Shown here: one piece after another, positions 1 to 34,505 of the stretch
Layout of the letters: each line of letters begins with the position of its first letter
Numbering within the stretch: position 1 is the stretch's first letter
The notes under the pieces: generated by a model
The model's database searches: none
The model's input: only the letters and a program-made list of their open reading frames with translations
Told to the model about the DNA's origin: nothing
Assembly (NCBI GenBank): GCA_947650365.1
Contig: OX393555.1
Coordinates: 80,667,995-80,731,994 of the forward strand
Origin: Chamaelirium japonicum
Lineage: Eukaryota > Streptophyta > Magnoliopsida > Liliales > Melanthiaceae
Reading direction: 5' to 3'
Length of the DNA: 64,000 bases
Translations under genes and position numbers: made by a program

Positions 1-104
1 TTAAATCTCTCTTATAAATAACGTTCATACCTAATCCATATTTAAATCTCTCCTACCTATAATCAATTAAATATAGGTCTTTTTTCTTCCATTTTTGTTC
101 GTTC

Positions 105-247
105 ACCTCAACGTTATAATTAGTTAAATAATAATATATCATAATAATGCTACTATAATTTTTTTAATTAAATTAATCATTATATTAAAACAAAGAGAGA
201 AGAGAATTTAATATGATAATCATAATAACGTTGAGATGATACTATTA
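105..247. repeat. AT-rich foldback (MITE-like) element
   Basis: The left arm carries 'cctcaacgttataat' and the right arm 'ataacgttgagatg' in inverted order, around a core with 'ctataattttttttaatta'-type sequence. The right arm joins directly to a minus-strand internal unit beginning 'aagtggag'. The partner in copy 2 is near 49,905-50,040. The type is the same as the 144-bp element at 10,978-11,121. Confidence 0.6.
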
Positions 248-620
248 AGAAGTGGAGTTTTGGAATTTAGATTCCTTCTTACTTCACACCTATACCCGTG
301 ACCAATGGACTGGAGCAGATCTTCTTCTTTCTTCTCTCTTCGTTTATCTCTCCGTTCTATTCTCTCTTCTTTTATCTCTTCTGTCTTTGTTTCTCTCTTC
401 TTTTTCTTGTGACTGGTTGGCTGGGCTCGACAAGTTCGTACTGATAACGTATTGTGAGATAGGAGGTTACATATTTATTTTAGTTATTTTATTTATTTTA
501 ATTAATATTTTCTAAATAAAATTATATAATTAATTCTCTCAATTAGTAAGCTTATCCTATAAATAGACTGGAGCAGGACTTCTCCTATCTTCTCTCTTCA
601 TTTATAATTTAATTAAAAAA
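246..620 (-). repeat. Minus internal unit with LTR stub
   Basis: Reads as the reverse complement of the TRIM internal segment: 'aagtggagttttgg' block, 'cccgtgaccaatggactggag', long pyrimidine tract, then the primer-binding site at 436-449 and the first bases of an LTR ('attgtgagat'). Bases 466-540 are AT-rich filler. At 541-600 a 'cttatcctataaata' LTR-promoter fragment is fused directly to 'gactggagcaggacttct', so a promoter box abuts internal sequence of opposite sense. Confidence 0.75.
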
Positions 621-1319
621 GTATCATCTCAACGTTATTATGATTATCATAGTAATGTTACTATAATTTTTTTAATTAAATTATTTATTTAATTTTTTAT
701 TAAATAATTAAATAATTTAATTATTAAGTTTAGTAAAATAAATAATTTATTTAATATTAAATAGATGATTAATTTAAATCATATACGAAGAAATATTATA
801 GAAACCCTATTTATTAAATTATTATAGTTTAATTTTTTTAAATTATAGTAACATTACTATAATAATCATTATTTCTTTAATTACTTATTTATTTAAATAT
901 TTATTCAATTTATTAACAAATTAGTTATTCAATAACTAAATAATCTATTTAATATATTTCTTCACTAAATAAATATTTAAATATTTAAATAATTAACTTA
1001 TTATTTAATTAATTAAAAATAAATAATAATTAATAAATTAATTATATAATTAAATCATTATTTCTTTATTTAATAATTAAAACAATTAAATAGTTACCTA
1101 ATTGAATTATTTAATAATATAATAATAATAAATAAATAATATAATAAATTTAATTTAATAACTAGATAATTTAATAATTAAATAAATTAAATATTTTACT
1201 AAAAAATTAATTATTGAAATTATTAAATTAATTTAAATATTAAAAATTAAATAAATAATTAATTTAATTAAAAAAATATAGTAACATTACTTTGATAATC
1301 ATAAAAACGTAAAGATGAC
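621..1319. repeat. AT-rich foldback element, long form (~700 bp)
   Basis: The left arm starts 'gtatcatctcaacgttatta' at 621. The right arm ends with its degenerate complement, 'gataatcataaaaacgtaaa', near 1,300. The core is almost pure A/T with short permuted motifs such as 'aataataaataaat' and 'attaaataactagataat'. The homologue in copy 2 is about 50,320-50,990. There is no open frame. Confidence 0.65.
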
Positions 1320-2096
1320 TGGTCAGCCTTAATTAATGGGAGAGATTCGACGGTGGATAGCGATCTGATAATTAGAGAGAGAAGAAGAGAGAAGAGAGAA
1401 GACATCTTACGCTAGTCCATTCACCACGGGTATAGGTGTGAAGTAAGAAAGATGGCTGTCCACCGTTGGATCTCTCACATGGATTAGGGTTTCCCATAGA
1501 TTGTTTAGGCCCTAAGTAAGCTTACCCTCTAAATAATATATTATCGTTTTAGAGTGGGGCACGTTTGACGGCTCTCTCTTTCTCCCACATCATAATACGT
1601 TATCAGCATGAACATATCGAGCCCAATTGACCAGTCGCAAGAAAACGGAGAGAGAAATGAAGACAGAAGAGCGAGAAGAAGAGATAAGAAAACAAAGAGA
1701 TAAATGAAGAAAGAAGAAGTCCTGCTTCAGTTCATTAGTTACGGGTATAGGTGTGAAGTAAGAAGGAATCTAAATTCTAAAACTCCTCAGAATAGAGAGA
1801 AGAAGAGAGAAGAGAGTAGAGAGATAAATGAAGAGAGAAGAAAGAAGAAGTCTTGCTCCCATCTCACAACACGTTATCAGCATGAATATATTGAGGCTAG
1901 CTGATTAGACACTAGAAAACAGATAGAAAAACAAAAAGAGAAGAGAGAAGAAGTCCTGCTCCAATCCATTAGCCACGGGCATAGGTATGAAGTAGTGTGA
2001 AGTAAGAAGGAGTCTAAATTACATAACTCAACTTCTCAATAAATAATATAGGACCCCTTTAGGGTGAGGCACGTTTGACGACTCTCTCTTTTTTAA
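1316..2096 (+). repeat. Plus TRIM units with inverted U3 pair
   Basis: A minus U3 scrap ('agagattcgacggtggatag', 1,343-1,365) and a plus U3 ('gatggctgtccaccgttgg', about 1,452-1,470) flank one internal piece. A truncated LTR with telo-box follows, ending at 1,597. Primer-binding sites are at 1598-1611 and 1872-1885. The purine tract runs roughly 1,640-1,730 and again 1,795-1,850. Copy 2 (51,600-51,680) has extra LTR sequence that copy 1 lacks before 1872. Confidence 0.75.
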
Positions 2097-2510
2097 TTAT
2101 AAACTTGAAATAATCAATGTTTTTATAAATATTCTTTAGGGTGGGGCACTATTATTTATCTCTACATTCTCTTACTTCGTTTAAATAATTAACTAAATAT
2201 TTAATTATTTAAAAATAAGATAATAATTAAAGAAATAACTAATAAAATAAATTAATAAATTAATTATATAATTAAATCATTATTTCTTTATTTAATTATT
2301 TAAATAATTAAATAGTTATCTAATTTAATTATTTAATAATAAAATAATAATAATAAATAAAATAATAAATTTAATTAAATAATTAGATAATTAAATAAAT
2401 TAATTATTTTAATAAAAACTTAATTATTAAATTATTTAAATTAATTAATAATTAAATAAAATTTTAATTTAATTTAAAAATTTATAGTATCATTAATATG
2501 ATAATCATAA
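2097..2510. repeat. AT-rich segment
   Basis: Starts with 'ttctttagggtggggcac', a lone R-region scrap at about 2,136-2,153. It is then A/T sequence related to 1,000-1,300, ending in the foldback right arm 'gataatcataataacgttga' at 2,500. Partner: 51,900-52,320. Nothing coding is seen. Confidence 0.65.
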
Positions 2511-4545
2511 TAACGTTGAGAAGATACTATTGAGAAGTGGAGTTTTTGAATTTAGATCCTTCTTACTTCATACCTATACCCGTGGCCAATGGACTAGAGC
2601 ATGACTTCTTCTTACTTAGGGCCTAAGCAATCTATGCGAAACCCTAATCCATGGGAAAGATCCGATTGTAGACAATTATCCGATAATTAGAAAGAGAAGA
2701 ACATAGAAGAGAGAATAAGTCCAGCTTCAGTCCATTCGCCATGGGTATAGGTATGAAGTAAGAATAATGACTGTCCACCGTCGGATCTCTCCTATAGATT
2801 AGGGATTCCCATAGATTACTTAGGCCTTAAGTAAGCTTACCCTATAAATAATAAATTATCCCTTTAGGGTGGAGCACGTTTGACGGCTCTTTCTTTCTCC
2901 CATTTCACAACACGTTATCAGTATGAACATATCAAGCCCAGCCGACCAGTCGCAAGAAAATAGAGAAAGAAATGAAGATAGAAGAGAGAGAGAAGAAGAG
3001 AGAAAAGAACAGAGAGATAAATAAAGAGGGAAGAGAAAAGAAGTCCTACTCTAGTTTATTGGCCATGGGTATTGGTGTGAAGTAAGAAGGAATCTAAATT
3101 CCAAAACTCCAAAGAAGAGAGAGAAGAAGAGAGAAGATAACGAAGAGATAAATGAAGAGAGAAAAGAGAAGAAGTCCTGCTCTAGTCCATTGGCCACGGG
3201 TATAAGTATGAAGTAAGAAGGAATCAAAATTCTAAATCTCCACAGAAGAGAGAGAAGAAGAGAGATTAAATAAGGAGTAGGACTAAAAATAATATTAGTT
3301 AAATAATCTCTCCCATTCAGCACGAACATGTCGAGCCCAGCTGTTCAATCACAAAAAAACGGAGAGAGAAACGAAAACAGAAGAGAGAGAAGAACAGAGA
3401 AGAGAACAGAGAGATAAATAAAGAGAGAAGAGAGAAGAAGTCCTGCTCCAGTCCATTCACCACGGGTATAGGTGTGAAGTAAAAAGGAATCTAAATTCCA
3501 AAACTTTAGTTCTCAATAATATAATTAAATCTTTCCATTCTCTTCTCTCTTCTTCTCTCTCTTTTATCTTCTCTTCTCTCTTCATTTTCTTGCGACTGGT
3601 CGGCTGGGCTCGATATGTTCGTACAGATAACGTGTTGTGAGATGGGCGAAAAAGAGAAAAGAACAAAGAGATAAACAAGGAGAGAAGTAAGAAGAAGTCC
3701 TGCTTAGGCCCTAAGTAATCTCCCGTGGATTAGGATTTATCATAGATTGGTTAGGCCCTAAGTAATCTTATCCAATAAATAATATACCTGTGACCTCTCC
3801 AGTCCATTGGCCACGGGTATAGGTGTAAAGTAAAAAGGAATGTAAATTCCAAAACTCCACTTCTTAATATTTATACGACTCATTTAGGGTGGGCATATTT
3901 GATAGCTCTTCCTTTCTCCCATCTCGCAACTTGTTATCAGCATGAACATGTCGAGCTGAGCCGACCAGTCATAAGAAAATGGAGAGAGAAATAAAGACAG
4001 AAGTGGAGTTTTGGAATTTATATTCTTTCTTACTTTATATATATACCCGTGGATAATGGACTGGAGCATGATTTCTTCTTTCTTTTCTCTTCGTTTATCT
4101 CTCTGTTATCTTCTCTCTTCTTTTCTTTCTTCTGTCTTTGTTTTTTTCTCTATTTTTTTGTGACTGGTCAGCTGGGCTCGATATGTTCGTGCTGATAACG
4201 TGTTGTGAGATTAAATAAGTATAATAAATAATAAGATAGTAGAGATCTGATGGGTCGTATAAATATTAAGAAGTGGAGTTTTGAAATTTAGTTTCCTTCT
4301 TACTTCATAACTATACCCATGGTGAATGGACTAGAGTAGGAGTTCTTCTCTCTTCTCTCTTTGTTTATCTCTTCGTTCTCTTCTCTCTTCTTTGAAGAAT
4401 ATACGACCCCTTTAGGATAGGGCACGTTTGACGGCTCTTTTCTCCCATCTCAAAACACGTTATCAGTACGAACATATTGAAGAGAGAAGAAGTTATATAA
4501 TCAATTAAATATTTATTTAATTAGATTCCATGGGGCTCGATATAT
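2511..4545. repeat. Mixed-orientation TRIM units
   Basis: Short units alternate strand. Plus primer-binding sites: 2913-2926, a truncated one at about 3,318, 3932-3945, 4458-4471. Minus sites: 3619-3632 and 4187-4200. Bases 2,650-2,800 repeat the inverted-U3 arrangement seen at 1,343-1,470. Bases 4,201-4,265 are a small AT insert ending '...gagatctgatgggtcgtat'. Copy 2 lacks bases 4,308-4,452 of this stretch, with 'tca' at both edges. Confidence 0.7.
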
Positions 4546-4559
4546 TCGTGCTAATAATG

Positions 4560-4727
4560 TGTTGTGAGATGGGAGAAAGAGAGAGCCGTCAAATGTGCCC
4601 CACCCTTAAAGGGTCGTATATTATTTATAGGGTAAGCTTACTTAGGGCCTAAGCAATATATGGGAAACCCTAATCTACGGGAGAGATCCGATGGTAGGTA
4701 GCCATCCGATCGAACGATCTCATAATA
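4560..4727 (-). repeat. Complete 168-bp LTR
   Basis: On the plus strand it runs from 'tgttgtgagatggga' to 'cgatctcataata', the reverse complement of the consensus LTR (TGTTGTGAGATCG...CCATCTCACAACA). It directly follows the primer-binding-site complement at 4546-4559, as expected for a 5' LTR read on the minus strand. It contains the TATA box complement (4,622-4,629) and an intact telo-box AAACCCTAA (4,665-4,673). The outer flank, 'gttgtaatgtttt', is the reverse complement of the flank outside the plus LTRs, so flank and LTR were copied together. LTR identity is inferred from terminal TG..CA, inverted ends, TATA box and adjacent primer site. Confidence 0.75.
4622..4673 (-). promoter_or_regulatory. 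LTR promoter: telo-box and TATA box
   Basis: In minus-strand order: TTAGGGTTT at 4673-4665, a CTTAGGCCCTAAG palindrome, then TATAAATA at 4629-4622. This is the clearest minus-strand copy of the U3 core. Confidence 0.55.
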
Positions 4728-5260
4728 GTTGTAATGTTTTAATTTTTTTTAAAAAAAAAATTAAATATTTTTCATGTAAAAAATTAGTTTATTTAAATTA
4801 ATTATTTTACTAAAAACTTAATTTATAAATTTTTTAAATTATTAAATAATTTAAACGAAGATAAATAAGAGAGAAGAGAGAAGAAGTCTTGCTCCAGTCC
4901 ATTCACCACGGGTATAGGTGCGAAGTAAAAAGGAATCTAAATTCTAAAACTTCACTTCTCAATAGTATCATCTCAACGTTACTATGATTATAATAGTAAA
5001 TTCTCTTCTCTCTTCATTTTAACTAAATAATTAATTTAATTAAAAAATTATAGTAGCAACACTCCACTTAATTATCATAGTAATAAAATAAAGTGAGAAG
5101 AGAGAAGATAATTAAATATTTAATTATTTAACTATTTAATTTATTAAATAATCAAATTAATTAAATAATAGGAAGTAAAGAAAGAAGATGAAGCACACTC
5201 GAATTTTTTACTTTAAAAATATTTTACATTTTTCTTTAAAAAAATATAAAACATTACAAT
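4728..5260. repeat. AT-rich spacer between two divergent LTRs
   Basis: Lies upstream of both the minus LTR (4560-4727) and the plus LTR (5261-5427). Contains AT-rich sequence, one plus internal fragment (about 4,857-4,960), a foldback arm 'ctcaatagtatcatctcaac' (4,958-4,980), and the conserved pre-LTR flank ending 'aaacattacaat'. Copy 2 keeps the arrangement at 54,176-54,719. Confidence 0.7.
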
Positions 5261-5427
5261 TGTTGTGAGATCGTTCGATCGGATGGCTGTCCACAGTCGA
5301 ACCTCTCCCATGGATTAGGGTTTGTCGTAGATTGCTTAGGCCCTAAGTAAGCTTACCTTATAAATAATATACGACACTTTTAGGGTGGGGCACGCTTGAC
5401 GGCCCTATTTTTCTCCCATCTTACATA
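5261..5427 (+). repeat. Complete LTR (~167 bp)
   Basis: Starts TGTTGTGAGATCG and ends 'cttacata' immediately before the primer-binding site. Carries 'gatcggatggctgtccac' (U3), a telo-box (5,315-5,323), a TATA box (5,359-5,366) and the R/U5 'ttagggtggggcacg' block. The expected terminal 'cacaaca' is decayed to 'tacata'. It forms a divergent pair with the minus LTR 534 bp away. Confidence 0.75.
5315..5366 (+). promoter_or_regulatory. LTR promoter: telo-box and TATA box
   Basis: TTAGGGTTT at 5315-5323 lies 35 bp upstream of TATAAATA at 5359-5366, with the palindrome near 5,334-5,349 between them. Transcription would start about 25-30 bp after the TATA box, in the 'ctttagggtgggg' block. That start is inferred from spacing only. 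Confidence 0.5.
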
Positions 5428-5441
5428 CGTTATCAGCACGA
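5428..5441 (+). other. Primer-binding site, tRNA-Ile(IAU) anticodon-arm type
   Basis: Exact consensus 14-mer CGTTATCAGCACGA directly after the LTR end. It is complementary to bases 27-40 of plant tRNA-Ile(AAU), as I recall that sequence, if wobble base 34 is inosine (read as G). The match stops outside the anticodon arm, which suggests priming by an internal or half tRNA rather than the CCA end. Confidence 0.55.
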
Positions 5442-7132
5442 ACATATCGAGCCCAGCCGACCAGTCGCAAAAAAATGGAGAGAGAAACAAAGACAGAAGA
5501 GAGAGAAGAATATAGAAGATAACGGAGAGATAAATGAAGATAGAAGAGAGAAGAAGTCCCGCTCTAGTCCATTAGCCATGGGTATAAGTACGAAGTAAGA
5601 AGAAATTTAAATTCAAAAACTCTACTTCTATATTTGATTCTCTCTCTGTTTTCTTACGATTGGTCGGCTAGGCTCGATATGTTCATGCTGATAACATGCT
5701 AAGAGATCGGAGAAAGAAAGAAGAGAGTAAAGAGATAAACGAAGAGAGAAGAGAGAAGAAAGAAAAAGTCCTGCTCTTTCTAGTTTAAGATGATTTTCTA
5801 TCTCTTTTCTATCAATACTTATTTATTTTATTTTATACTATAAGAGAAAGAGAGAGAAATAAAGAAAACGGGGAGAGAAACAAAAGATAACGTGTTATAA
5901 GATGGGAGAAAGAGAGAGCCGTCAAATATGCCCTACCCTAAAGGAGTCGTATATTATTTATAGGGTAAGTAGTATGAGATGGGAGAAAGAGAGAGCTATC
6001 AAACGTACCCTACCCTAAAGGGGTCGAATATTATTTATAGGGTAAGCTTACTTAGGGCCTAAGAATTCTATGGGAAACCCTAATCCATGGGAAAAGAGAG
6101 AAGAGAACAGAGAAATTTAATTATATTATTGAGAAGTAAAGTTTTGGAATTTAGATTCCTTCTTAATTAAACAAGATATATTATCAGCACGAACATATCG
6201 AGCCCAGTCGACCAGTTGCAAGAAAACAGAGAGAGAAACAAAGACAGAAGTGGAGTTATGGAATTTGGATTCTACCTTACTTTACACCTATACCCGTAGC
6301 CAATGGACTGGAGCATTACTTCTTCTCTCTTCATTTATCTCTCCGTTCTCTTCTCTCTTCTTCTTTCTCTCCTGTCTTCGTTTTTCTCTCTATTTTCTTG
6401 CGACTGGTCGGCTGGGCTTGACATGTTTGTGCTGATAACGTATTGTGATTTGGGAGAAAGAGATAGAGCCGTCAAATATGCCCTACCCTAAAAGGGTCAT
6501 GTATTATTTATAGGGTATGCTTACTTAGAGCCTAAGCAATGTATGGGAAATCCTAATCCATAGGAGAAGAGAGAAGAGAACGAAGATTTTTAATTATATT
6601 ATTAAGAAGTGGAGTTTTGGAATTCAGATTCCATATTACTTCAAACCTATACCCATGGCTAATGTACTCGAGCAGAACTTCTTCTCTCTTTATTTATCTC
6701 TCTGTTCTCTTCTCTTTTCTTCTCTCTCTTCTATCTTTGTTTCTCTCTCCTTTTTCTTGTGACTAGTCCGCTGGGCTCGATATGTTCATATAGATAACGT
6801 GTTGTGAGATGGGAGAAAGAGAGAGCGTCAAACATGCCCCACCATAAAGGGGTCATTTAAATATTAAGAAGTGGTGTTTTTGAATTTAGATTCATTCTTA
6901 CTTCAAATCTATACCCGTGGCCAATGGACTGGAGCAAGACTTCTTATCTCTTCTATCTTCGTTTATTTCTCCGTTATTTTCTTTCTTCTTCTCTCTCTTT
7001 TGTATTCATTTCTCTCTTCATTTTCTTGTGACTGGTCGGTTGGGCTCGATATGTTCGTGCTGATAACGTATTATGAGATGGGATAAAGAGAGAGTCATCA
7101 AACTTGCCCTACCCTAAAGGGGTCGTATATTA
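5442..7132. repeat. Mixed TRIM units, mostly minus
   Basis: Plus internal to about 5,630. Minus primer sites at 5683, 6427, 6786 and 7055; a plus site at 6179. Bases 5,795-5,890 hold a module with 'ttctatctcttttctat' and an AT run, found otherwise only at 55,230-55,350; its copy there carries a small tandem duplication of 'acggggagagaaa'. The minus LTR starts at 5,893-5,960 and 5,971-6,090 are partial tandem copies. Confidence 0.7.
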
Positions 7133-7437
7133 TTTATAGGGTAAGCTTACTTAGTGCCTAAGAAATCTATGGAAAACCTTAATCCATGGGAGAAGAAAGA
7201 AGAGAACAGAGAGATTTAATTATATTATTAAGAAGTGGAGTTTTGGAATTTAGATTCCTTCTTACTGCATACCTATAACCGTGGCCAATGGACTAGAACC
7301 TGACTTCTTCTCTCTACTATCTTTATTTATCTCTTCATTCTCTTCTTTCTTCTTCTCTCTTTTGTCTTTGTTTCTCTCTCCGTTTTCTTGCGACTGGTCA
7401 CTGGGCTCGACATGTTCGTGCTGATAACGTGTTGTGA
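7133..7437 (-). repeat. 305-bp tract identical to 11,384-11,688
   Basis: Base-for-base identical to the downstream tract at an offset of 4,251, including odd states such as 'ttagtgcctaag', 'cttactgcat', 'ctataaccgtgg' and 'gaacctgac'. It runs from the LTR promoter region (minus) through a whole internal unit to the primer site at 7416-7429. Copy 2 has unrelated unit sequence here (about 56,600-56,680), while 'cttagtgcc' is kept at 60,915, the homologue of 11,402. So 11.4 kb is the likely donor and this site the recipient. Confidence 0.85.
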
Positions 7438-10400
7438 AGTGGATTTAATTATATTATTGAGAAGTGGAGTTTTGGAATTTAGATTTCTTCTTACTTCACA
7501 CCTATACCTGTGGCGAATGGACTGAAGCAGGACTTCTTCTCTCTTCTCTCTTCATTTATCTCTTTGTTCTCTTCTCACTTGTCGTAACATATTATTAGCA
7601 CAAACATGTCGAGCCCAGCCGACCAGTCATAAGAAAACGGAGAGAGAAATAATGACAGAAGTGAGAGAAGAAGAGATAAGAGAACGGAAAGATAAACGAA
7701 GAGAGAAGAGAGAAGAAGTCCTACTCCAGTCCATTAGCTATGGGTATAGGTGTGAAGTAAGAATGAATCTAAATTCCGAAACTCCATAGAAGAGAGAGAA
7801 GAAAAGAGGAGAGAACGGAGAGATAAATAAAGTTAGAATATAAAAGAAGTCCTACTCCAGTCCATTGGCCATGGGTATAGGTATGAAGTAAGAAGGAATC
7901 TAAATTCCAAAACTCCATTTCTATCTTCATTTCTCTCTCCATTTTCTTGTAACTGGTCGGTTGGGCTCGATATTTTTGTGCTGATAATGTGTTATGAGGT
8001 ATGAGAAAGAGAGAGCCATCAAATGTGCCCCTCCCTAAAGAGGTCATATATTATTTGTAGGGTAAGCTTAATTAGGGCCACCGTCGAATCTCTCCCATAG
8101 ATTAGGATTTCCTATAGATTGCTCCAAGTAATCTTACCTTATAAATAATATATGACCCTTTTAGGGTGGGGCACGTTTGACGGCTCTCTCTTTTTTCCAT
8201 CTTATAATAAGTTATCAGTACGAACATATCGAGCCCAGCCGACCAGTCACAAGAAAACGGAGAGAGAAACAAAGACAAAAGTGGAGTTTAGGAATTTATA
8301 TTCCTTCTTATGTCACACCTATACCTGTGGCCAATGGACTAGAGTAGGACTTCTTCTCTCTTTATTTATCTCTCCATTCTATTCTCTCTTCTTATTTCTC
8401 TTATGTGGAGTTTTGAAATTTAGATTCTTTATTACTTTACAGCTATACGCGTAGCCAATGGACTGGAGCAGGACTTCTTATATCTTCTCTCTTTGTTTAT
8501 CTCTCTGTTATCTTCTTTCTCTTCTTTCATCTTTTCTCTCTCTGTTTTCTTATGATTGGTCGGTTAGGTTCGACATGTTCATGTTGATAATGTGTTGTGA
8601 GAAGAGAGAAGAGAACAGAGAGACAAATAACAAAGAGAGAAGAGAGAAGAAGTCCTGTTCCAGTCCATTTTCCACAGGTATAGGTGTGAATTAAGAAAGA
8701 TTCTAAATTCCAAAACTCCACTTCTTAATAATATAATTAAATCCCTTCGTTCTTTTTTCTCTTTGTCTATGGATTAGGGTTTCTCATAGATTGCTTAGGC
8801 CCTAAGTAAGCTTTTCCTATAAATAATATACGACCCCTTTAGGGTGGGGCACGTTTGACGGCTCTCTCTTTCTCCCACCTCACAGCATATTATCACTACG
8901 AATATATCGAGCCTAGCTGACCAGTCGCAAGAAAATAGTAAGAGAAATAAAGATAGAAGTGGAGTTTTGGTATTTATATTCCTTCTTACTCCACATTTAT
9001 ACCCGTGGCTAATGTACTGGAGTAGGACAACTTCTCTCTTCTCTCTTCATTTATCCCTCTGTTTGCTTCTCGCTTCTTATATCTCTTTTGTCTTCATTAA
9101 ACTCCACTTCTTCTCTATATTAACGGATAGAGAAACGAAGACAAAAGAGAAAGAAAAAGAGAGAAGAAAATGGAGAGATAAACAAAGAGAGAAGAAGTCC
9201 TGCTCCAGTCCATTGGCCACTGGTATAGGTGTGAAGTTCTTTATTTTCTCTTTATTTATCTCTCTATTCTCTTCTTGCTTCTTATCTCTCTTCTGTCTTC
9301 GTTAAAGTCCCCTTCTTCTGTAAATAAACGGATAAAGAAAAGTAGACAGAAGTAAGAGAAGAAGAGAAAAGAGAACGGAGAGATAAACGAAGAGAGAAGA
9401 GTGAAAAAGTCCTGCTCTAGTTAATTGGCTACAGGTATATGTGTGAAGTAAGAAGGAATTTAAATTCCAAAACTCCACTTCTGTCTTCGTTTCTGTTTCT
9501 GTTTTCTTGCGACTGGTCAGCTGGGCTCGATATGTTCGTGCTGATAAAGTATTATGAGATGGGAGAAAGGAAGAGCTATCAAACGTGCCCCACCATAAAG
9601 GGGTCATATGTTATTTATATAGTAAGGTTACTTAGGTCCTAAGCAATCTATGGAAAACCCCAATCCATGGGAGAAGAGAGAAGAGAATAGAGAGATTTAA
9701 TTACATTATTTAGAAGTGGAGTTTTGAAATTTAGATTCCTTCTTACTTCACATCTATACCCGTGGCGAATGGACTAGAGTAATATTTCTTCTCTCTTCTT
9801 TCTTCGTTTATCTCTCCTTTCTCTTCTTTCTTCTTTTTTTTTCTCACAACTCGTTATCAGCATGAACATATCGAGCCTAGCCGGCCAGTCACAAGAAACT
9901 GAAGAGAGAAACAAAGACAGAAGAGAGGGAAGAAAAGAGAAGAGAATGGAAAGAAAAATAATTTAAATAATATATTTAAATAATTTAGTTAAATTCTAAA
10001 TAGTGGTTGGCTGGGCTTGATATGTTCATGCTGATAACGTGTTGTGAGTAAAGAGAAGAAGAGAGAAGAGAATGGAGAGATAATGAAGAAAGAAGAGAGA
10101 AGAAGTTCTGCTCCTGTCCATTATCCTCGGGCATAGGTGTTAAGTAAGAAGAAATCTAAAACTCCACTTCTCAATAATATAATTAAATCTCTCCATTCTC
10201 TTCTCTCTTCTCCCATGGACTAGGGTTTCTCATAGATTACTTAGGCCCTAAGTAACCCTATAAATAATATACGATCCCTTTAGGGTGGGGCACATTTGAC
10301 GGCTCTCTCAGTCTCCCATCTCATAATACGTTATCAGCACGAACATGTCGAGCCCAGTCGACTAGTCGTAAGAAAAACAGAGAGACAAATGAAGATGAAA

Positions 10401-10977
10401 GATGAGAGAAGAGAACGAAAAGATAAACGATGATAGAAGAGAGAACTTCACACCTATACCCATGGCGAATAGACTAGAGCAGGACTTCTTCTCTCTTCTC
10501 TCTTCATTTATTTCTCCATTCTCTTCTCTCTTCTTCTCTCTCTTCTATCTTCGTGTCTCTCTTCATTTATTAAGAAAAGAAGTGGAGTTTAACGAAGATA
10601 GAAAAGAGAGAAGAAGAGAGAAGAAAATAGAGAGATAAATGAAGAGAGAAGAGAGAAGAAGTCCTGCTCCAGTCAATTAGCCATGGGTATAGGTGTAAGG
10701 TAAGAAGGAATCTAAATTATAAAAATCTACTTCTGTCTTCGTTTTTTTATCCATTTTCTTATAATGGGTCGGCTGGGCTTGACATGTTCGTGCATATAAC
10801 GTGTTGTGAGATGAGAGAAAGAGAGAGCTGTCAAATATGACCCACCCTAAAGGGGTTGTATATTATTTATAAGGTAAGCTTACTTAGGGCCTAAGCAATC
10901 AATAGGAAAACATAATCCATGGGAGAAGATAGAAGAGAAATGAGAGATTTAATTATAATATTGAGAAGTAGAGTTTT
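7438..10977. repeat. Mixed-orientation TRIM units
   Basis: Plus primer sites: about 7589, 8210, 8888, 9852, 10329. Minus sites: 7976, 8579, 9536, 10026, 10788. At about 8,080 the joint 'agggcca|ccgtcg' marks a 350-bp deletion relative to copy 2 (57,314-57,663), with a 3-bp 'cca' at each edge. Bases 9,090-9,345 hold two copies of a small module 'ctccacttcttct..ta..aacggata'. Bases 9,955-10,010 hold an AT patch, 'atttaaataatatatttaaa'. The reading frames in this stretch are purine or pyrimidine tract artefacts. Confidence 0.7.
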
Positions 10978-11121
10978 CTCAATAATATTATCTCAACGTT
11001 ATTACGATTATTATAGTAAATTCTATTCTCTCTTCGTTTTAATTAAACAATTAATTTAATTAAAAAAATTATAGTAACATTACTATGATAACCATAATAA
11101 CATTGAAAAGATACTATTGAG
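10978..11121. repeat. 144-bp foldback element with ~42-bp inverted arms
   Basis: Left arm 10,978-11,019 and right arm 11,080-11,121 are imperfect inverted repeats starting 'ctcaat' and ending 'attgag'. The core is AT-rich with 'cttcgttttaattaaacaat'. Both flanks carry the internal-unit motif ('aagtagagtttt' left, 'aagtggtgcttt' right), resembling a 12-bp target duplication or a repeat-in-repeat insertion. The copy at 60,495-60,638 is exactly the same length with the same flanks. Confidence 0.7.
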
Positions 11122-11383
11122 AAGTGGTGCTTTGAAATTTAGATTCCTTCTTACTTCATACCTATACCCATGGCGTATGGACTGGAGTATAACTTCTTCT
11201 CTCTTCTCTTTTCGTTTTTCTCTCCGTTCTCCTCTTATCTTTTCTCTCTTCTCTCTTCGTTTCTCTCTCCGTTTTCTTGTGACTGGTCAGCTGGGCTCGA
11301 TATGTTCGTGCTGATAACGTGTTATGAGATGAGAGAAAGAGAGAGCCATCAAACGTGCCCCACCCTAAAGGGGTCGTATATTT
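11122..11383 (-). repeat. Minus TRIM unit
   Basis: Internal block, pyrimidine tract, primer site 11306-11319 and LTR 3' half. Homologue: 60,639-60,900. Confidence 0.7.
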
Positions 11384-11688
11384 TTTATAGGGTAAGCTTA
11401 CTTAGTGCCTAAGAAATCTATGGAAAACCTTAATCCATGGGAGAAGAAAGAAGAGAACAGAGAGATTTAATTATATTATTAAGAAGTGGAGTTTTGGAAT
11501 TTAGATTCCTTCTTACTGCATACCTATAACCGTGGCCAATGGACTAGAACCTGACTTCTTCTCTCTACTATCTTTATTTATCTCTTCATTCTCTTCTTTC
11601 TTCTTCTCTCTTTTGTCTTTGTTTCTCTCTCCGTTTTCTTGCGACTGGTCACTGGGCTCGACATGTTCGTGCTGATAACGTGTTGTGA
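11384..11688 (-). repeat. Donor tract identical to 7,133-7,437
   Basis: Minus unit with LTR promoter portion, internal segment and primer site (11667-11680). Its homologue in copy 2 (about 60,896-61,200) shares 'cttagtgcctaag' and 'gactagaac', which makes this the original location of the 305-bp sequence. Confidence 0.8.
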
Positions 11689-13270
11689 GATGGGAGAAAA
11701 AGAGAGCCATTAAACATGTCCCACCTTAAAGGGGTCGTATATTATTTATAAGGTAAGCTTACTTAGGGCCTAAGTATTCTATGGGAAACCCTAATCTATA
11801 GGTGATATCCGACAGTGTATCTCTTAATATTTGAACTTAGGGCCTAAGCAATTCGGGTGTGCCACTTCTTACTATCGAGCCCAGCCGACCAATCATATCT
11901 CACTCTTCTGTCTTTGTTTATCTCTTCGTTCTCTTCTATCTTTTTCAGTCACTTCTATGAAGTTTTGGAATTTAGATTCCTTCTTACTTCACACCTGAAC
12001 CCATGGCTAATGGATTGGAGAAGGACTTCTTTTCTCTTCTCTCTTCGGAGAGATTTGAGAGAAGAAGAAAGAAAAGAACAGAGAGATAAATAAAGAAAGA
12101 AGAGAGAAGAGAGAAGAAGTCCTGCTCCAGTCCATTGACCACGGGTAAAGGTGTGAAGTAAGAAGGAATCTAAATTCCAAAACTTCTCTTCTATCTTCGT
12201 CTCTTTCCATTTTCTTGTGATTGGTAGGCTGGGCTCGATATATTCATGCTGATAATGTGTTGTGAGATGGGAGAAAGAGAGAGCCGTCAAAAGTGCCCCA
12301 CCCTAAAGGGGTCAAATATTATTTATAGGGTAAATGTTATTAGATGAGAGAAAGAGAGAGCCATAGACGTGCCCCACCCTAAAGGGGTAATATATTATTT
12401 ATAGGATAAGCTTACTTAGGGCCTAAGCAATCTATGGGAAACCCAAATCCATGGGAGAAGAGAGAAGAGAACAGAGAGATTTAATTATATTATATGACCT
12501 CTTTAGGGTGGAGCAAGTTTGACGGCTCTCTCTTTCTCCTATCTCATAACACATTAATAAGTAAACTTAATTATTAAATTATTTAAATTATTTAGTAATT
12601 AAATAAATAATTAATTTAATTAAAAAAATTATAGTAATATTACTATGATAATCATAATATCGTTGAGATGATACTATTGAGAAGTAGAGTTTTGGAATTT
12701 AGATTCCTTCTTACTTCACACCTATACCCATGGTGATAATCAGTTATATATAATTAAATATTTATAAGGTAAGCTTACTAATTAAGAGAATTAATTTAAT
12801 AATTATTTAAATAAATAATTAATACGACCCCTTTAGGGTGGGGCATGTTCGATCGGATGGCTGTTCACCGTCAGATCTCTCCCATGGATTAGGGTTTCTC
12901 ATAGATTGCTTAGGCCCTAAGTAAGATTACCCTATAAATAAAATACGTTATCAACACGAACATGTCAAGCCCAGCCGACCAGTCATAAGAAAACAGAGAG
13001 AAAAAAGAAGACATGAGAGAGAAAAAAAGAGAGAAGAGAACAGGGAGATAAACGAAGAGAGAAGATAGAAGAAGTCCTACTCCAACCTATTGGCCACGGG
13101 TATAAGTGTAAAGTAAGAAGAAATCTAATTAGGGTGGGGCATGTTTGATTGCTCTCTCTTTCTTCCATCTCATAACACATTATAGTAGAAACATATCGAG
13201 CCCAACCGACCAGTCATAAGAAAACAGAGAGAGAAACGAATACAAAAGAGAGAGAAGAAGATATAGTCAA
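11689..13270. repeat. Mixed TRIM units and AT patches
   Basis: Bases 11,811-11,890 hold a composite 'gtgtatctcttaatatttga' / 'ttcgggtgtgccacttctt' joint, also at 61,326-61,400. Minus primer site at 12244; plus sites at 12946 and a degenerate 13178. At 12,930-12,946 the TATA box ('cctataaata') is fused straight to the primer site, deleting R-U5; that unit is absent from copy 2. Bases 12,555-12,665 and 12,735-12,825 are AT-rich. The truncated plus LTR at 12,843 begins 'gttcgatcggatggctgtt'. Confidence 0.7.
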
Positions 13271-13713
13271 AAAAATAATAATTTTAATAAATTTATTATA
13301 TAATTAATTAATTAAAATTTTCTTATTAAATTATAAAATATTAATTAAAATAAATAAAAAATTAATTATTTAATTAAGTAATAAAATAAAATAATAATTC
13401 AATAACTATTTACTTATTACTTAAATAATAAGTTAATTTTTTGAATATATAAATAATAAAATATTTTTTTAAATAACTTAAATTTTTTTAAATAATCAAA
13501 TTAATATTTAAATATTAAATAAATTATATAAATAATTTAAATATTTAGTTATAAAGATAATTAAATATTTATTTAATTATTTAACTATTTAATTTATTAA
13601 ACTAATTAAATTAATTAAATAATAGAAAGTTAAGAAGGAAGATGAGGCACACCCAAATTTTTTGATTTAAAAATAATTTATATTTTTCTTTAAAAAATTT
13701 AAAATATTACAAC
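13271..13713. repeat. AT-rich segment upstream of a plus LTR
   Basis: Almost pure A/T with poly-permuted 'ttaaataat' motifs. It ends with the conserved pre-LTR block 'aagatgaggcacacccaaat' (about 13,640-13,660), 'ctttaaaaaatttaaaat' and 'attacaac'. Partner: 62,520-62,981. No gene is seen. Confidence 0.7.
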
Positions 13714-13881
13714 TGTTATGAGATTGTTCGATCGAATAGCTGTCCACCGTCGGATCTCTCCTATGAATTAGGGTTTCCCTTAGATTGCTTAGGCCCTAAG
13801 TAAGCTTACCCTATAAATAATATACAACCCCTTTAGGGTGGAGCATGTTTGATGGCTCTCTCTTTCTCCCATCTCACAATA
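13714..13881 (+). repeat. Complete 168-bp LTR
   Basis: Starts TGTTATGAGATTG and ends 'atctcacaata' next to a perfect primer-binding site. Telo-box 13,768-13,776; TATA box 13,812-13,819. Its length equals 4560-4727 and 62,982-63,149, which supports 168 bp as the family length. Confidence 0.75.
13768..13819 (+). promoter_or_regulatory. LTR promoter: telo-box and TATA box
   Basis: TTAGGGTTT and TATAAATA, with the 'cttaggccctaag' palindrome between them. All three are intact in this copy. Confidence 0.5.
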
Positions 13882-15616
13882 CGTTATCAGCACGAATATG
13901 TCGAGCCTAGCCGACCAGTCATAAAAAAACAGAGAGAGAAACGAAGAGAGAAGAAGAAAGAAGAGAACGGAGAGATAAATAAAGAGAGAAGAGAGAAGAA
14001 GTCCTGCTGCAATCAATTCGCCATGGGTATAAGTGTAAACTAAGAAATAATCTAAATTCTAAAACTCCACTTCTTAATATTTATATAGCCCCTTTAGGGT
14101 GGGGCATATTTGACGGCTCTCTTTTTCTCCATTACACAATACGTTATCAACACGAACATGTCAAGCTCAGCCGACTAGTCATAAGAAAACAGAGAGAGAA
14201 AGGAAGATAGGAGAGAGAAAAAAAAAAGAAGAGAATAGGGAGATAAACGTAGAAAGAAGATAAAAGAAGTCTTGCTCTAACCTATTGGCCACATGTATAG
14301 GTGTAAAGTAAGAATAAATCTAATTAGGGTGGGGCATGTTTGATGGCTCTCCCTTTCTCCCATCTTACAGCACGTTATCAGTACGAATATGTCGAGCCCA
14401 ACCGACCACTTATTAGAAAACAGAGAGAGAAACGAAGACAGAAGAGAGAGAAGGAGATAGAAGAAAATATAGAGATAAACGAATAGAGAAGAGAGTAGAA
14501 GTCCTACTCCAGTCTATTTGCTATGGGTATAGATGTATAGTAAGAAGGGATCTAAATTATAAAACTCTACTTATCAATAAAATAATTAAATCTGTCCGTT
14601 CTCTTCTCTCTTCTCCCATGGATTAGGGTTTACCATAGATTGCTTAGGCCCTAAGTAAGCATACCCTATAAATAAAATATGACCCCTTTATGGTAGGGCA
14701 TGTTTGACAGGTCTCTTTTTCTCCTATCTCACAAAACGTTATCAGCACAAACATGTCTAGCCCAGCCAACCAGTCATAAGAAAACAAAGAGAGAAACAAA
14801 GACAGAAGAGAGAGAAGAAAATTAAGAATTAATTATTTAAATAGTTTCTTCTTATACGGGTATAGGTGTGAAGTAAGAAGGAATCTAAATTCTAAAACTC
14901 CACAAAAGAGAGAGAAGAAAAGAGAAAAGAACAAAGAAATAAATAAAGAGAGAAGAGAGACGAAGTCTTACTCTAGTCCATTAGCCACGGGTATAGGTAT
15001 GAAGTAAGAAAGAATCTAAATTCCAAAACTCTATTTTTCAATATTTATACGACCTATTTAGGGTGGGGCATGTTTGACGGCTCTCTCTTTCTCCCATCTC
15101 ATAATACTTTATCAGTACGAACATGTCGAGCCTAACCGACCAGTTATAAGAAAATGGAGAAAGAAATGAAGACAAAAGAGAGAGAATAAGAGAGAAGAGA
15201 ACAGAGAGATAAACAATGAGAGAAGAAAGAAGAAGACCTGCTCTAGTCTATTGGCCATGAGTATAGATGTGAAGTAAGAAGGAATCTAAATTCCAAAATG
15301 CCACTTCTCAATAATATAATTAAGTCTCTTTATTCTCTTCTTTCTTCTCCCATGGATTAGGGTTTTCTATAGATAGCTTAGGCCCTAAGTAAACTTACCC
15401 TATAAATTATATACGACCCCTTTAGATGGGGCACGTTTGATGACTCTCTTTTTCTCCCATCTTATAATACGTTATCAGCACGAATATGTCGAGCCCAGTC
15501 GATCAATCACAAGAAAACGGAGAGAGAAACGAAGATAAAAGCGAGAGAAGAAGAGAGAATAGAATAGAGATATAAACGAAGATAGAAGAGAAAAGAAGTT
15601 CTACTCCAATTTATTG
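13882..15616 (+). repeat. Uniform plus-strand TRIM array
   Basis: Six primer sites on one strand at 13882, 14142, 14373, 14737, 15107 and 15470, giving spacings of 260, 231, 364, 370 and 363 bp. The short spacings lack U3; the long ones at 14737 and 15470 carry 'cccatggattagggttt' and TATA, and the one at 15107 includes an extra partial internal piece. This is the clearest head-to-tail run and defines the monomer sizes. Confidence 0.8.
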
Positions 15617-16714
15617 CCATCCGATCGAACGATCTTATAACAGTTGTATTGTTTTAAAATTTTTCAAAGAAAAATATAAATTAATTTTATTACAAAAAAT
15701 TCATTGACAATCGATTAAGAGAAGAAGAGAGAAGAGAATGATGAGATGAATGAAAAGAGAAGAGAGAAGTAGTCCTACTCCAGTCCATTCGCCACAGGTA
15801 TAGGCATGAAGTAAGAAGAATCTAAATTCCAAAACTCTACTTCTCAATAGTATCATCCCAAAGTTATTATGATTATCATATTAATGTTATTATAATTTTT
15901 TTAATTAAATTAAGTATTTATTTACTTATTAAATAATTTAAATAATTTAATAATTTAATAATTATATTTTTGGTAAATTAATTAATTTATTTAATTACTT
16001 ATTTATCTAGTTATTTAATAAAATTTATTATTTTATTTATTTATTATTAGTATATTATTAAATAATAATTTAATTATATAATTAATTTATTAATTCTTTT
16101 TATTAGTTATTTCTATAATTATTATTTTATTTTTAAATAATTAAATAATTAGTCAAAAATTTAAATATTTAAAAATTTATTTAGTTAAAAATATATTAAA
16201 TAGATAATTTACTTAAAGGAATAAATAATTTAATAATTTAATTATTTTATAGTTAAATAAATAATATTTTAAATTAATTAATATATAATTAAATAAATAA
16301 AAAATTATTTTATTAAAGTATGAAATATTAAATAAAATAAAAAAATTAATTATTTAATTAAGTAATAAAATAAAATAATAATTTAATAACTATTTACTTA
16401 TTATTTAAATAATTAGTTAATTATTTGAATATATAATTAATAAAATATTTTTTTAAATAACTTAATATTTTTTTAAATAATCAAATAAATATTTATTTAT
16501 TTTAATATTTAAATAATAAATAAATTATTTAAATAATTTAATTATATAGATAATTAAATATTTATTTAATGATTTCATTATTTAACTATTTAATTTATTA
16601 AAATAATAAATTAATTAAATAATAGGAATTAAAAACGGAAGATAAGGCACACTTAAATTTTTTTCTTTAGAAATAATTTATATTTTTCTTTAAAAAAATT
16701 TAAAACAGTACAAA
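15617..16714. repeat. AT-rich spacer with a minus LTR remnant
   Basis: Bases 15,617-15,650 are the outer end of a minus LTR ('gccatccgatcgaacgatct', then 'tataaca'). The conserved flank and one plus internal fragment (15,715-15,845) follow. A foldback arm sits near 15,850-15,890, then about 800 bp of A/T sequence to the pre-LTR block at 16,640-16,714. It has the same divergent-LTR design as 4,560-5,427 but with one arm truncated. Confidence 0.7.
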
Positions 16715-16860
16715 TGCTATGAGATCGTTCGATCGGATGACTATCCATCGTCGGATCTCTCCCATGGATTTGGGTTTCCCATAGATTGCTTAGGCCCTAA
16801 GTAAGCTTAACCTATAAATAATATACGACCCCTTATGGGTGGGGCACGTTTGACATCTCT
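16715..16860 (+). repeat. 3'-truncated LTR
   Basis: Starts TGCTATGAGATCG, contains TATAAATA at 16,813-16,820 and a mutated telo-box ('tttgggttt'). It breaks after 'gtttgacatctct' into 'actccacttctc' of an internal unit, so U5 and primer site are missing. The joint looks like unequal or illegitimate recombination between units. Confidence 0.7.
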
Positions 16861-17099
16861 ACTCCACTTCTCAATAATATAATTATATCTCTTTGTTCTC
16901 TTTTATCTTCTCCTATGGATTAGGGTTTTCCATAGATTGCTTAGGTCCTAAGTAAGCTTACCCTATAAAGAATATACGACCCCTTTAGGGTGGGGCACGT
17001 TTGATGACTCTCTTTCTCCCATCTCACAACAAGTTATCAGCACGAACATAACTAGCCCAGCCGACCAGTCGCAAGAAAACGGAGAGAGAAACAAAGACA
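16861..17099 (+). repeat. Plus TRIM unit with promoter
   Basis: Short U3 (telo-box variant, TATA), R-U5 and a primer-site variant at 17032-17045 ('agttatcagcacga'), followed by 'cgaccagtcgcaagaaaacg'. It then flips to a minus internal at about 17,103. Confidence 0.7.
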
Positions 17100-18760
17100 G
17101 AAGTGGAGTTTTAGAATTTAGATTTTTTCTTAGTTCATACTTATACCCATGGTCAATGGACTAGAGCATGACTTCTTCTCTCTTATATCTTTGTTTATCT
17201 CTCCGTTCTCTTCCATCTGTCTTTGTTTCTCTCTCTATTTTCTTACGACTGGTCGATTGGGCTCGACATGTTCGTACTGATAACGTGTAGTGAGATGGGA
17301 GAAAGAGAGAGCCGTCAAATATGCCCAACTCTAAAGGGGTCGTATAAATATTGAGAAGTTGAGTTTTGGAATTTAAATTCCTTCTTACTTCATATCTATA
17401 TTCGTGGCTAATGGACTGGAGCAGGACTTCTTCTCCCTTCGTTTATTTCTTCATTCTCTTCTCTCTTCTTCTCTCTTCTGTCTTTGTTTTTTTTTTGTTT
17501 TCTCTTCTCTTTACTTCTCTCTCTTCTGTCTTTGTTTCTCTCTCTATTTTTACTTGACTGGTAGGTTGGGCTCAGTACGTTCATTCTGATAACGTACTGT
17601 AAGGTGGAAGAAAAAGAGAGCCGTCAAACATGCCCTACCCTAAAGGGGTCATATAAATATTAAAAAGTGGAGTTTTGTAATTTAGATTCTTTCTTACTTC
17701 ACACCTATACCCATGGCCAATGGACTGGAGCAGGACTTCTTTTCTTTTCGTACTGATAATATTTCTATAATTGTTTTAATTAAATTAATTATTTAATTAA
17801 AACGAAGAGAGTTTTGGAATTTACTATGATAATTATAATAACTTTGAGATGATGCTATTAAGAAGTGGAGTTTTGAAATTTAGATTTATTCTTACTTCAC
17901 ACTTATACCCACAGTGAATGGACTGGAGCAGTATTTCTTTTCTCTTCTCTCTTTATTTATCTCTCCGTTCTCTTCTCTTTTCTGTATTCGTTTCTCTTTT
18001 TGTTTTCTAGCAACTGGTCAGCTGGGCTCGACATGTTCATGCTGATAAAGAATTGTGAGATGGGAGAAAAAGAGATCCATCAAACATGCCCAACCCTAAA
18101 GGGGTCGTATTTATTTATAGGGTAAGCTTATTTAAGGCCTAAGCAATCTATGGGAAACCGTAATCCATGGGAGAATAGAGAAGAGAACGGAGATATTTAA
18201 TCATATTATTGAGAATTGGAGTTTTGAAATTTAGATTCCTTCTTACTTCACTCCTATACCGGTGGCGAATGGACTGGAGTAAGACTTTTTTTCTCTTCTC
18301 TCTTTATTGTTCTCTCCATTCTCTTCTCTCTTCTCACAACACGTTATCAGCACGAACGTCTCGAGCCCAACCGGCCAGTCACAAGATAACGATACAAGAA
18401 ACGAAGACAGAAGAGAGAGAAGAAGAGAGAAGAGAACAGAGAGATAAATAAAGAGAGAAGAAGAGAAATAAAATATTTTTTATGCATATAAATTTATATA
18501 AATTATTTAATAAATATAAAATGTTTTATAATTAAATATTTATATGATAATATTGAGATGATATAATTTTAATATTTAAAGAAACGATATACTTTATAAT
18601 ATTTAAAAAAATATTAATTGAAATAAATAAAATAAATAAGCAATCTCCCATCTCACAATACGTTATCAACACGAATATGTCAAGCCCAATGGACCAGTCT
18701 TAAAAAAACGGAGAGAGAAATGAAGACAGAAGAGAGAGATGGAGAGAGAAGGAGAGAGAA
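17100..18760. repeat. Third partial paralog of the 5.3-kb duplication
   Basis: Landmarks 17272, 17748, 18342 and 18661 match 31101, 31579, 32183 and 32501 (offset about 13.83 kb). The last three also match 36955, 37570 and 37877 (offset about 19.2 kb). Diagnostic joints are shared: a pyrimidine tract running straight into a primer site and AT core at 17,740-17,765; 'gagaagagaacggagatatt' at about 18,180; and a plus primer site fused to a minus pyrimidine tract at 18,335-18,355. Primer sites: -17272, -17581, -17748, -18047, +18342, +18661. Confidence 0.8.
18470..18648 (+). repeat. AT module of ~180 bp ('ataaaatatttttt' type)
   Basis: Starts 'gaaataaaatatttttta' and ends just before 'caatctcccatctcacaata'. 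Related modules are at 32,305-32,485 and 37,675-37,860, and in reverse at 27,990-28,150. It replaces the upstream LTR in front of a plus primer site each time, so it is inherited as part of the unit rather than inserted independently. Confidence 0.7.
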
Positions 18761-34308: not shown

Positions 34309-34505
34309 CGTTATCAACACGAACATATCGAGCCCAGCCGACCAATCATAAGAAAACGGAAAGAGAAATGAAGACAGAAGAGAGAAAAGAAGAGAGAATA
34401 TAACAAAGAGATAAACAAAGAGAAAAAAGAGAAGAAGTCCTGCTCTAGTCCATTAGACACGGGGATAGGTGTGAAGTAAGAAGGAATCTAAATTCCGAAA
34501 CTCCA

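What the first reader, a model, noticed from the sequence alone, without database searches (positions are those of the whole stretch)
1..14735. Direct ~49.5-kb duplication (higher-order repeat)
The first 14.7 kb and the last 14.2 kb match in order, orientation and private mutations, with only small indels. If tandem, the window shows about 1.3 periods of a very long higher-order unit.
Basis: seen in the sequence. Interest (0 to 1): 0.75.

Follow-up and report, generated by a model that had tools for sequence, protein, structure and literature searches.

The report
Giant dispersed palindrome of plant satellite
The 49.5-kb duplication is real, but it is an old two-copy piece inside one arm of a giant mirror-image block of non-coding satellite DNA that has been copied almost unchanged to many places in a plant genome, which matters as an example of how repetitive chromosome regions can grow and spread.

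Summary
Observation confirmed; HOR reading only half right. Window 1-14,731 and 49,796-63,999 are colinear: the partner is the best in-window match in 24 of 29 tiles, mean 86.8%. With flanks, the duplication pairs -10.2..35.7 kb with 39.9..81.3 kb: two nearly adjacent copies, and no third found at the neighbouring ~49.5-kb steps. It is one old tandem duplication, not a 49.5-kb array.

The real structure is larger. The window (unnamed plant, contig C7) lies in the right arm of a giant palindrome: -7.6..104 kb matches -71.5..-182.6 kb inverted, 97.7% over 111 kb. Five markers recur at 96-100% in mirrored order O-A2-T-A1-S | S-A1-T-A2-O, with gaps, on C2, C3, C4, C7, C10 and small contigs. A centre marker forms 17 inverted pairs, 5.6-8.1 kb apart. 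Near one end each of C2 and C4, twelve arms alternate strictly.

I read it as a satellite-built palindrome amplified by unequal exchange and spread between chromosomes. I found no genes in the window. Function untested; species unidentified; some interior positions may be scaffolding errors.

The parts
1..14731 (+).
49796..63999 (+). Copy A2 (part of duplication copy 2, which runs from about 39.9 kb to 81.3 kb, i.e. 17 kb past the window)
1..35703 (+). In-window part of copy 1 of the direct duplication
   Evidence: chain at offsets 45.6-50.1 kb; the stretch 25.2-30.0 kb has no colinear partner in the chain
39948..64000 (+). In-window part of copy 2 of the direct duplication
1..64000 (+). Whole window = middle of the right arm of a giant palindrome; the mirror copy lies inverted at C7:80,485,377-80,596,504 (window -182,617..-71,490), 97.7%
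   Evidence: centre of symmetry near window -68 kb is inferred from the centre pairs of other sites
9100..9900 (+). Marker A1: 40 of 40 listed full matches at 96-100%; two length classes (800-802 bp, 28; 813-814 bp, 12)
20862..21631 (+). Marker T (270-bp unit, 2.9 tandem copies): 38 matches at 98-100% and 2 at 94%, on 8 contigs
59900..60700 (+). Marker A2: 24 matches at 96-100% and 16 at 94-95%; 10 of these 16 are shown to lie 0.57-0.62 Mb from a contig end
30330..34510 (+). Second internal direct duplication inside the arm (partner 35,752-39,941, 82.6%)
35752..39941 (+). Partner of 30,330-34,510

Best explanation
The window is non-coding plant satellite DNA with units of roughly 130-365 bp in both orientations. 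Shown: a tandem duplication of a satellite segment of about 41-46 kb gave A1 and A2 (now about 86-87% alike). That segment is part of a much longer block that exists as a palindrome. At the window's site the arms are 97.7% alike over 111 kb; at other sites the arms reach to within about 8 kb of each other and about 150 kb outward. The block recurs at many places on at least five chromosome-size contigs at about 98%. Inferred: the palindrome arose by a fold-back (inverted) duplication; ectopic exchange or duplication then copied it as a unit to other chromosomes; near two chromosome ends, unequal exchange between palindromes amplified it to six palindromes (twelve alternating arms) inside a frame of outer flanks, and there only the outermost arms were found to keep A2. 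The 49.5-kb step is thus a passenger feature of the arm that was there before the spread: 15 of 19 arms with both markers keep it at 49-51 kb, marker to marker, and 4 have 64-68 kb. No function is indicated by anything found here.
For: Two-copy limit and irregular other copies. Inverted arms -7,575..104,000 against -71,490..-182,617, 111,284 aligned columns at 97.67%; no N in the 304-kb stretch. Mirrored marker order, no listed marker out of order or strand: (markers). The centre marker makes 17 pairs, all in -,+ order, 5.6-8.1 kb apart, with 4 singles. Strict -+ alternation of marker S, 12 of 12 on C2:0.40-1.25 Mb and 12 of 12 on C4:93.68-94.50 Mb; read from the inner side, 6 of 11 gaps agree within 2 kb (113 of 20,000 permutations reach this). 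The A1 length classes of these two arrays, read the same way, also run in similar order. A2 and O matches at 96% or more occur only on the outermost arms of these two arrays. Spread after arm divergence: of nine head-to-head pairs outside the two arrays with A1 on both arms, five show the 813/801-bp pattern and four the 801/802-bp pattern. Over 3.77 kb the window arm is 98.1-98.5% like six of seven other loci (97.3% like the seventh) and 97.9% like its own other arm. No ORF of 170 aa or more, no Rfam match and no tRNA in the window.
Against: Each genome search scores only its best 40 candidates, so completeness is unknown. Of eight two-arm sites only one (C163) shows all five markers on both arms; the others lack one or more, at C3 the whole outer right arm (A2, O) twice. 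The window's own palindrome is incomplete: its left inner arm lacks S and centre, so symmetry there is shown for 111 kb, not to the centre. On C10 an inner arm does carry A2. Of ten tail-to-tail joints in the two arrays only six have both T markers; the other four differ, and the one joint probed is not a fold-back at its midpoint. Several sites lie 3-20 Mb inside scaffolds, and an N stretch abuts a telomere array at C1:105.03 Mb, so scaffolding errors are possible. The A1 predicted at C5:0.53 Mb was not there: that place is an inverted A2 at 92.5%. C3 has two sites 1.51 Mb apart at 99.92%, which could be a recent duplication or an assembly double.
Confidence: 0.75

Rival explanations
1. A true tandem higher-order-repeat array with a 49.5-kb period, of which the window shows 1.3 periods.
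For: Two nearly adjacent same-strand copies with similar anchor order.
Against: No third copy found at either neighbouring step (on the right only the first 4.7 kb of A2 could be tested at 49.5 kb); A-segment copies at irregular spacing and orientation, star-like tree.
Confidence: 0.07
2. Assembly artefact: inverted or duplicated contigs, uncollapsed haplotypes or mis-scaffolding make the palindromes and the dispersal.
For: About 428 Mb of the 1,519 Mb lies outside the 12 large contigs (sum of lengths), with more than 100 open rbcL copies among the small ones, as plastid leftovers give; an N stretch sits at an internal telomere array; the C3 pair is 99.92% alike.
Against: The 304-kb stretch has no N. 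Arms differ by 2.3% and carry arm-specific indels shared between contigs. The mirrored order repeats at many places, including the small contigs C163 and C207.
Confidence: 0.1
3. Breakage-fusion-bridge cycles (telomere loss, sister fusion, repeated breakage) directly produced the alternating arrays, rather than unequal exchange between ready-made palindromes.
For: Alternating -+ orientation and inverted centres near two chromosome ends; four of ten tail-to-tail joints differ from the common type.
Against: Six of ten tail-to-tail joints share one step of 19.85-19.91 kb, which fits one joint amplified as a unit; the C2 joint probed is asymmetric; two-arm sites lie inside scaffolds and share the outer markers.
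Confidence: 0.25
4. The palindrome is selected for a chromosome-structure function (end protection, pairing, centromere-like activity).
For: Similar megabase arrays near two chromosome ends; related blocks at similar distances from several contig ends.
Against: No chromatin data; spread by exchange alone explains the pattern.
Confidence: 0.12

Closest known systems
Subterminal heterochromatic caps of chimpanzee, bonobo and gorilla (pCht satellite with segmental-duplication spacers; PMC12058530: start of abstract, passages and the section on subterminal heterochromatin seen)
   Same: Megabase blocks near chromosome ends with a higher-order structure of hundreds of kilobases, present on many chromosomes and implicated in ectopic exchange.
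   Different: There a 32-bp satellite alternates with a ~32-34-kb spacer from a once euchromatic duplication; here the unit is itself satellite, is palindromic, and alternates in orientation. A plant, not an ape.
Large palindromes of mammalian Y chromosomes (as described in the review PMC5704215, passages seen; arm sizes recalled)
   Same: Long inverted arms of high identity.
   Different: No genes found here; copies on several chromosomes; arms are no more alike within a site than between sites, so no sign of arm-to-arm conversion in the one piece tested.
Plant subtelomeric satellites (general knowledge; only search listings seen, e.g. PMC10827815)
   Same: Non-coding tandem units of a few hundred bp, on several chromosomes and near chromosome ends.
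   Different: A ~300-kb palindrome as the repeated unit was not met in the listings and passages I saw.
Segmental tandem duplication (the 49.5-kb pair itself)
   Same: Two nearly adjacent same-strand copies with indels.
   Different: Made of satellite DNA, hence embedded in dense background similarity.

Membership tests
Higher-order repeat (HOR) array with a 49.5-kb unit | Unit-to-unit identity clearly above that between arbitrary segments of the array | tested here: met
   86.8% and best match in 24 of 29 tiles, against a background mean of 76.9%
Higher-order repeat (HOR) array with a 49.5-kb unit | Three or more consecutive units at a regular step | tested here: not met
   No colinear copy found at the next step on either side; right side tested for 49.8-54.5 kb only at that offset
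Large palindrome | Two long inverted arms of high identity | tested here: met
   111,284 aligned columns at 97.67%
Large palindrome | Arms meet at a short central spacer | tested here: met
   17 inverted centre pairs 5.6-8.1 kb apart at other sites; not met at the window's own site, whose left inner arm lacks these markers
Y-type palindrome kept by arm-to-arm gene conversion | Arms of one site more alike than arms of different sites | tested here: not met
   97.93% own arm against 97.27-98.51% for seven other loci over 3.77 kb; one place only
Subtelomeric repeat | Location next to telomeres on several chromosomes | tested here: inconclusive
   Arrays within 1.4 Mb of a contig end on C2 and C4 and related 94-95% blocks 0.57-0.62 Mb from several ends, but the window lies 5.1 Mb from the end of C7 and others 3-20 Mb inside
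Ape-type subterminal cap | Short satellite tracts interrupted by a non-satellite spacer at regular intervals | tested here: not met
   In the 304 kb, tiles of -50..102 kb (the part printed) show satellite-like matches except mainly around a young retrotransposon at -42.8..-29.8 kb
Macrosatellite | Large unit in tandem, variable copy number between alleles | tested here: inconclusive
   Palindrome number per site is 1, 2 or 6 between loci; no population data

The most novel reading that the evidence does not exclude
A palindromic macrosatellite: a ~300-kb mirror-image unit built of an older satellite (with nested 45-kb and smaller duplications) that passes between non-homologous chromosomes as one piece and amplifies to megabase arrays of strictly alternating arms within shared outer flanks. 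This would be a level of satellite organisation above the ordinary HOR, in which inversion symmetry is part of the repeated unit.
Probability: 0.45. Interest if true: 0.7.

Novelty: new variant of a known kind. Interest (0 to 1): 0.55.

Why it matters
Satellite DNA is usually described by its monomer. Here the unit that is copied between chromosomes is about a thousand times larger than the monomer and is a palindrome, so the traffic of single identifiable units between chromosomes can be followed by arm-specific indels and shared gaps. That makes the question of how such repeat blocks are exchanged and amplified directly testable, and it warns that colinear 'duplications' in such regions can be small parts of larger symmetric structures.

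Tried and rejected
49.5-kb array: tested with flanks and rejected locally. Telomere-to-telomere fusion as the origin of the palindrome centre: no run of three or more TTTAGGG/CCCTAAA repeats (one mismatch per repeat allowed) in the 304-kb stretch, so not supported; the window site's centre is damaged, so not excluded elsewhere. Link to rDNA: none of the 15 listed 5.8S matches lies near these sites. Idea that the 94-95% terminal blocks carry the same A1-A2 step: the place predicted on C5 is an inverted A2. Perfect fold-back at the tail-to-tail joint: the 2-kb probe near one midpoint is still one arm, 97.7%. Organism: plant-type telomere repeat, 12 large contigs (C7; the other eleven), rbcL nearest to 1wdd in the PDB (that 1wdd is rice is recalled); species not identified. 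The resemblance of the satellite to a retrotransposon LTR (TATA-like and primer-site-like motifs) is recalled, not tested. A search for rubber-tree subtelomeric satellite papers was a guess at the species and found nothing.

Literature: searches (with no paper at all) showed me no description of a palindromic plant satellite unit of this size; this covers only the held open-licence library, those terms and the rows listed.
Full report
What was checked. The window is C7:80,667,995-80,731,994 of an unnamed 1.52-Gb genome in 3,253 contigs. It has TTTAGGG telomere repeats and over a hundred rbcL copies on small contigs, as plastid sequence gives, so it is a plant. Twelve contigs are of chromosome size, 69.9-137.3 Mb (C7, the other eleven). 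The window holds dense tandem satellite with spacings of about 130, 270 and 365 bp in both orientations, four stop-to-stop ORFs of 156-168 aa and none longer, no Rfam family and no tRNA.

The observation. The two segments match colinearly. Against the window's own background, the partner at about 49.5 kb is the best match in 24 of 29 tiles (one more is a tie), mean identity 86.8%, while 602 other alignments of 300 bp or more average 76.9%. One of the exceptions, the tile at 7.0 kb, is beaten by a local near-copy: 6,862-7,437 against 11,115-11,688 at 93%, which looks like a local conversion or short duplication.

How far it goes. I fetched 200 kb to the left and 40 kb to the right. The colinear track runs from -10.2 to 35.7 kb in copy 1 and from 39.9 to 81.3 kb in copy 2, at offsets of 45.6-50.1 kb, with most blocks at 85-90% and a few at 80-85%; weaker, patchy pieces continue on both sides, and the whole chain with them averages 85.6%. 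The copies are nearly adjacent, so one tandem duplication of a 41-46-kb segment is the plain reading. No third copy was found at the next step on either side; on the right, the fetched flank allows that test at 49.5 kb only for 49.8-54.5 kb. Other copies of the ~18-kb A segment lie at irregular places: A3 at about 82-90 kb, an inverted copy at about -68 to -46 kb, and A4 at about -197 to -182 kb. In a 2.15-kb piece, A1 is 92.8% like the inverted copy, 88.6% like A2, 88.2% like A4 and 86.8% like A3. The 49.5-kb pair is not a privileged relation.

The larger structure. The window and its flanks from -7,575 to at least 104,000 match -71,490 to -182,617 in inverted orientation, 111,284 aligned columns at 97.67%, with no N in the 304 kb. 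The match still runs where the fetched flank ends. The region between holds the inverted A copy and a retrotransposon with reverse transcriptase, RNase H and integrase domains, flanked by two 750-bp repeats that differ at one base, so it is a young insertion.

Copies elsewhere. Six markers were searched in the whole genome; each search scores only about its best 40 candidates, so counts are lower bounds. T (20.9 kb): 38 of 40 at 98-100%, 2 at 94%. A2 (59.9 kb): 24 of 40 at 96-100%, 16 at 94-95%. A1 (9.1 kb): 40 of 40 at 96-100%. S (-9.7 kb): 40 of 40 at 97-100%. O (100 kb): 22 at 96-100% plus the window's own left arm split in two; the rest at 83-86%, apart from split pieces at 92-93% on C36 and C4. 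Centre (-65 kb): 13 full-length at 97-100%, 25 partial at 93-98%, 2 at 89-90%. Sorted by position, the five outer markers fall in the mirrored order O-A2-T-A1-S | S-A1-T-A2-O on C2 (three places), C3 (two, plus one right arm alone), C4, C7 (two), C10, C163 and C207. None of those kept is out of order or strand, but many arms lack a marker: of eight two-arm sites only C163 has all five on both arms; both C3 sites lack A2 and O on the right; the window's site lacks S on the left. Some gaps may be due to the cap, but for O, where the list drops sharply to 86%, a missing copy is real or strongly diverged. C1, C164 and C255 show only A2 and O. The centre marker occurs as 17 pairs, all -,+, 5.6-8.1 kb apart, and 4 singles, among them the window's own site. 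From centre to O is 149-165 kb on eight of the eleven arms measured; the others are 175 and 214 kb (C163) and 90 kb (C10).

The arrays. On C2:0.398-1.250 Mb and C4:93.678-94.498 Mb, marker S alternates strictly, 12 of 12 arms each. Read from the inner side, 6 of 11 gaps agree within 2 kb, which 113 of 20,000 class-keeping permutations reach; the other five differ by 10-24 kb, as insertions or deletions would make them. Both begin with a 41.9-kb gap in place of the usual ~80 kb. Read the same way, the A1 lengths of the six head-to-head pairs are 814/801, 813/801, 813/801, 802/801, 802/not listed, 813/801 on C2 and not listed/801, 813/801, 813/801, 800/802, 802/not listed, 813/801 on C4 (my reading), again similar. 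A2 and O at 96% or more occur only at the outermost arms of both arrays; on C10, with four arms, an inner arm does carry A2. Of the ten tail-to-tail joints, six have T markers 19.85-19.91 kb apart and four lack one or both T markers. A 2-kb probe near one midpoint is still one arm at 97.7%, so that joint is asymmetric.

The 49.5-kb step in the copies. Of 19 arms that have both A1 and A2, 15 keep them 49.2-51.3 kb apart (marker to marker; 50.8 kb in the window) and 4 have 63.9-68.2 kb. The duplication is therefore older than the spread. A2 was not found on the inner arms of the two arrays, and A1 was not found where predicted at C5:0.53 Mb, which is an inverted A2 at 92.5%.

Arm types. Marker A1 is 813-814 bp long in 12 of 40 matches and 800-802 bp in 28. 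Of nine head-to-head pairs outside the two arrays with A1 on both arms, five show 813/801 (the window's site, C10, C207, C163, C2 at 109.9 Mb) and four 801/802 (second C7 site, two C3 sites, C2 at 111.4 Mb; a one-base difference). This fits copying of whole palindromes after the arms had diverged. Over 3.77 kb the window arm is 97.3-98.5% like seven other loci and 97.9% like its own other arm, so there is no sign of arm-to-arm homogenisation there.

Position. Of the nine 94-95% A2 matches that lie on C1-C12, seven lie 0.576-0.619 Mb from a contig end; the exceptions are C4:0.11 Mb and C5:83.36 Mb. The ~98% family lies within 1.4 Mb of a contig end on C2 and C4 but 3-20 Mb inside on C1, C3, C7, C10 and at the other places on C2. 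An N stretch abuts a telomere array at C1:105.03 Mb (N may also be a withheld stretch), so some interior positions may come from scaffolding. I therefore do not call the family strictly subtelomeric.

Mechanism. Shown: old two-copy duplication, palindrome, dispersal, alternating arrays. Inferred: fold-back duplication as origin, ectopic exchange as vehicle, unequal exchange as amplifier. Not tested: any function, and whether the region is heterochromatic. With plant rates of about 0.7-1.3 x 10^-8 per site per year (recalled), 2.3% between arms would be roughly 1-1.7 million years and 13% between A1 and A2 roughly 5-10 million; these are rough.

Known relatives. Ape subterminal caps share the scale and the link to exchange between chromosomes but have a different unit (PMC12058530; passages and one section seen). 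Y palindromes share the symmetry but carry genes and sit on one chromosome (PMC5704215, passages). A holocentric plant has satellites whose 23- and 28-bp monomers can form palindromic structures (PMC10264360, passages), a different scale. Searches showed me no description of a palindromic plant macrosatellite.

Verdict. Observation right; HOR reading half right; the interest lies in the giant palindrome that contains it.

Noticed in passing
window -42.8 kb to -29.8 kb (L024, L025, start of L026): Young Ty3/gypsy-type LTR retrotransposon in the central region of the palindrome: two 750-bp repeats with one difference, a pol ORF of 1,126 aa with RT, RNase H and integrase domains, and an ORF of 666 aa on the opposite strand with only one Pfam match, below its cut-off.
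   Followed up: partly
window 6862-7437 and 11115-11688: Two stretches 93% alike (97% in one tile), far above their surroundings: a sign of recent local conversion or duplication inside A1.
   Followed up: no
window 30330-34510 and 35752-39941: Another internal direct duplication, offset 5.4 kb, 82.6%: the arm is built of nested duplications of several ages.
   Followed up: no
window about 870-1270, 2180-2460, 13280-13620, 15900-16620, 26590-27240: Recurring blocks of a few hundred bases made almost only of A and T inside the satellite.
   Followed up: no
C1:105,031,018-105,052,468 (L029): Internal TTTAGGG array in + and then - orientation next to a stretch of N: an old fusion, a scaffolding join of two chromosome ends, or a withheld stretch.
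   Followed up: partly
C3:95.36-95.59 Mb and 96.88-97.10 Mb: Two palindrome sites 1.51 Mb apart, 99.92% alike over 3.77 kb and equally spaced: a very recent megabase duplication or an assembly double.
   Followed up: no
C3, C5, C6, C7 (both ends), C12; also C14, C44, C77: A related 94-95% family of the A2 segment lies at a near-constant 0.57-0.62 Mb from contig ends, which suggests colinear subtelomeres on several chromosomes.
   Followed up: partly
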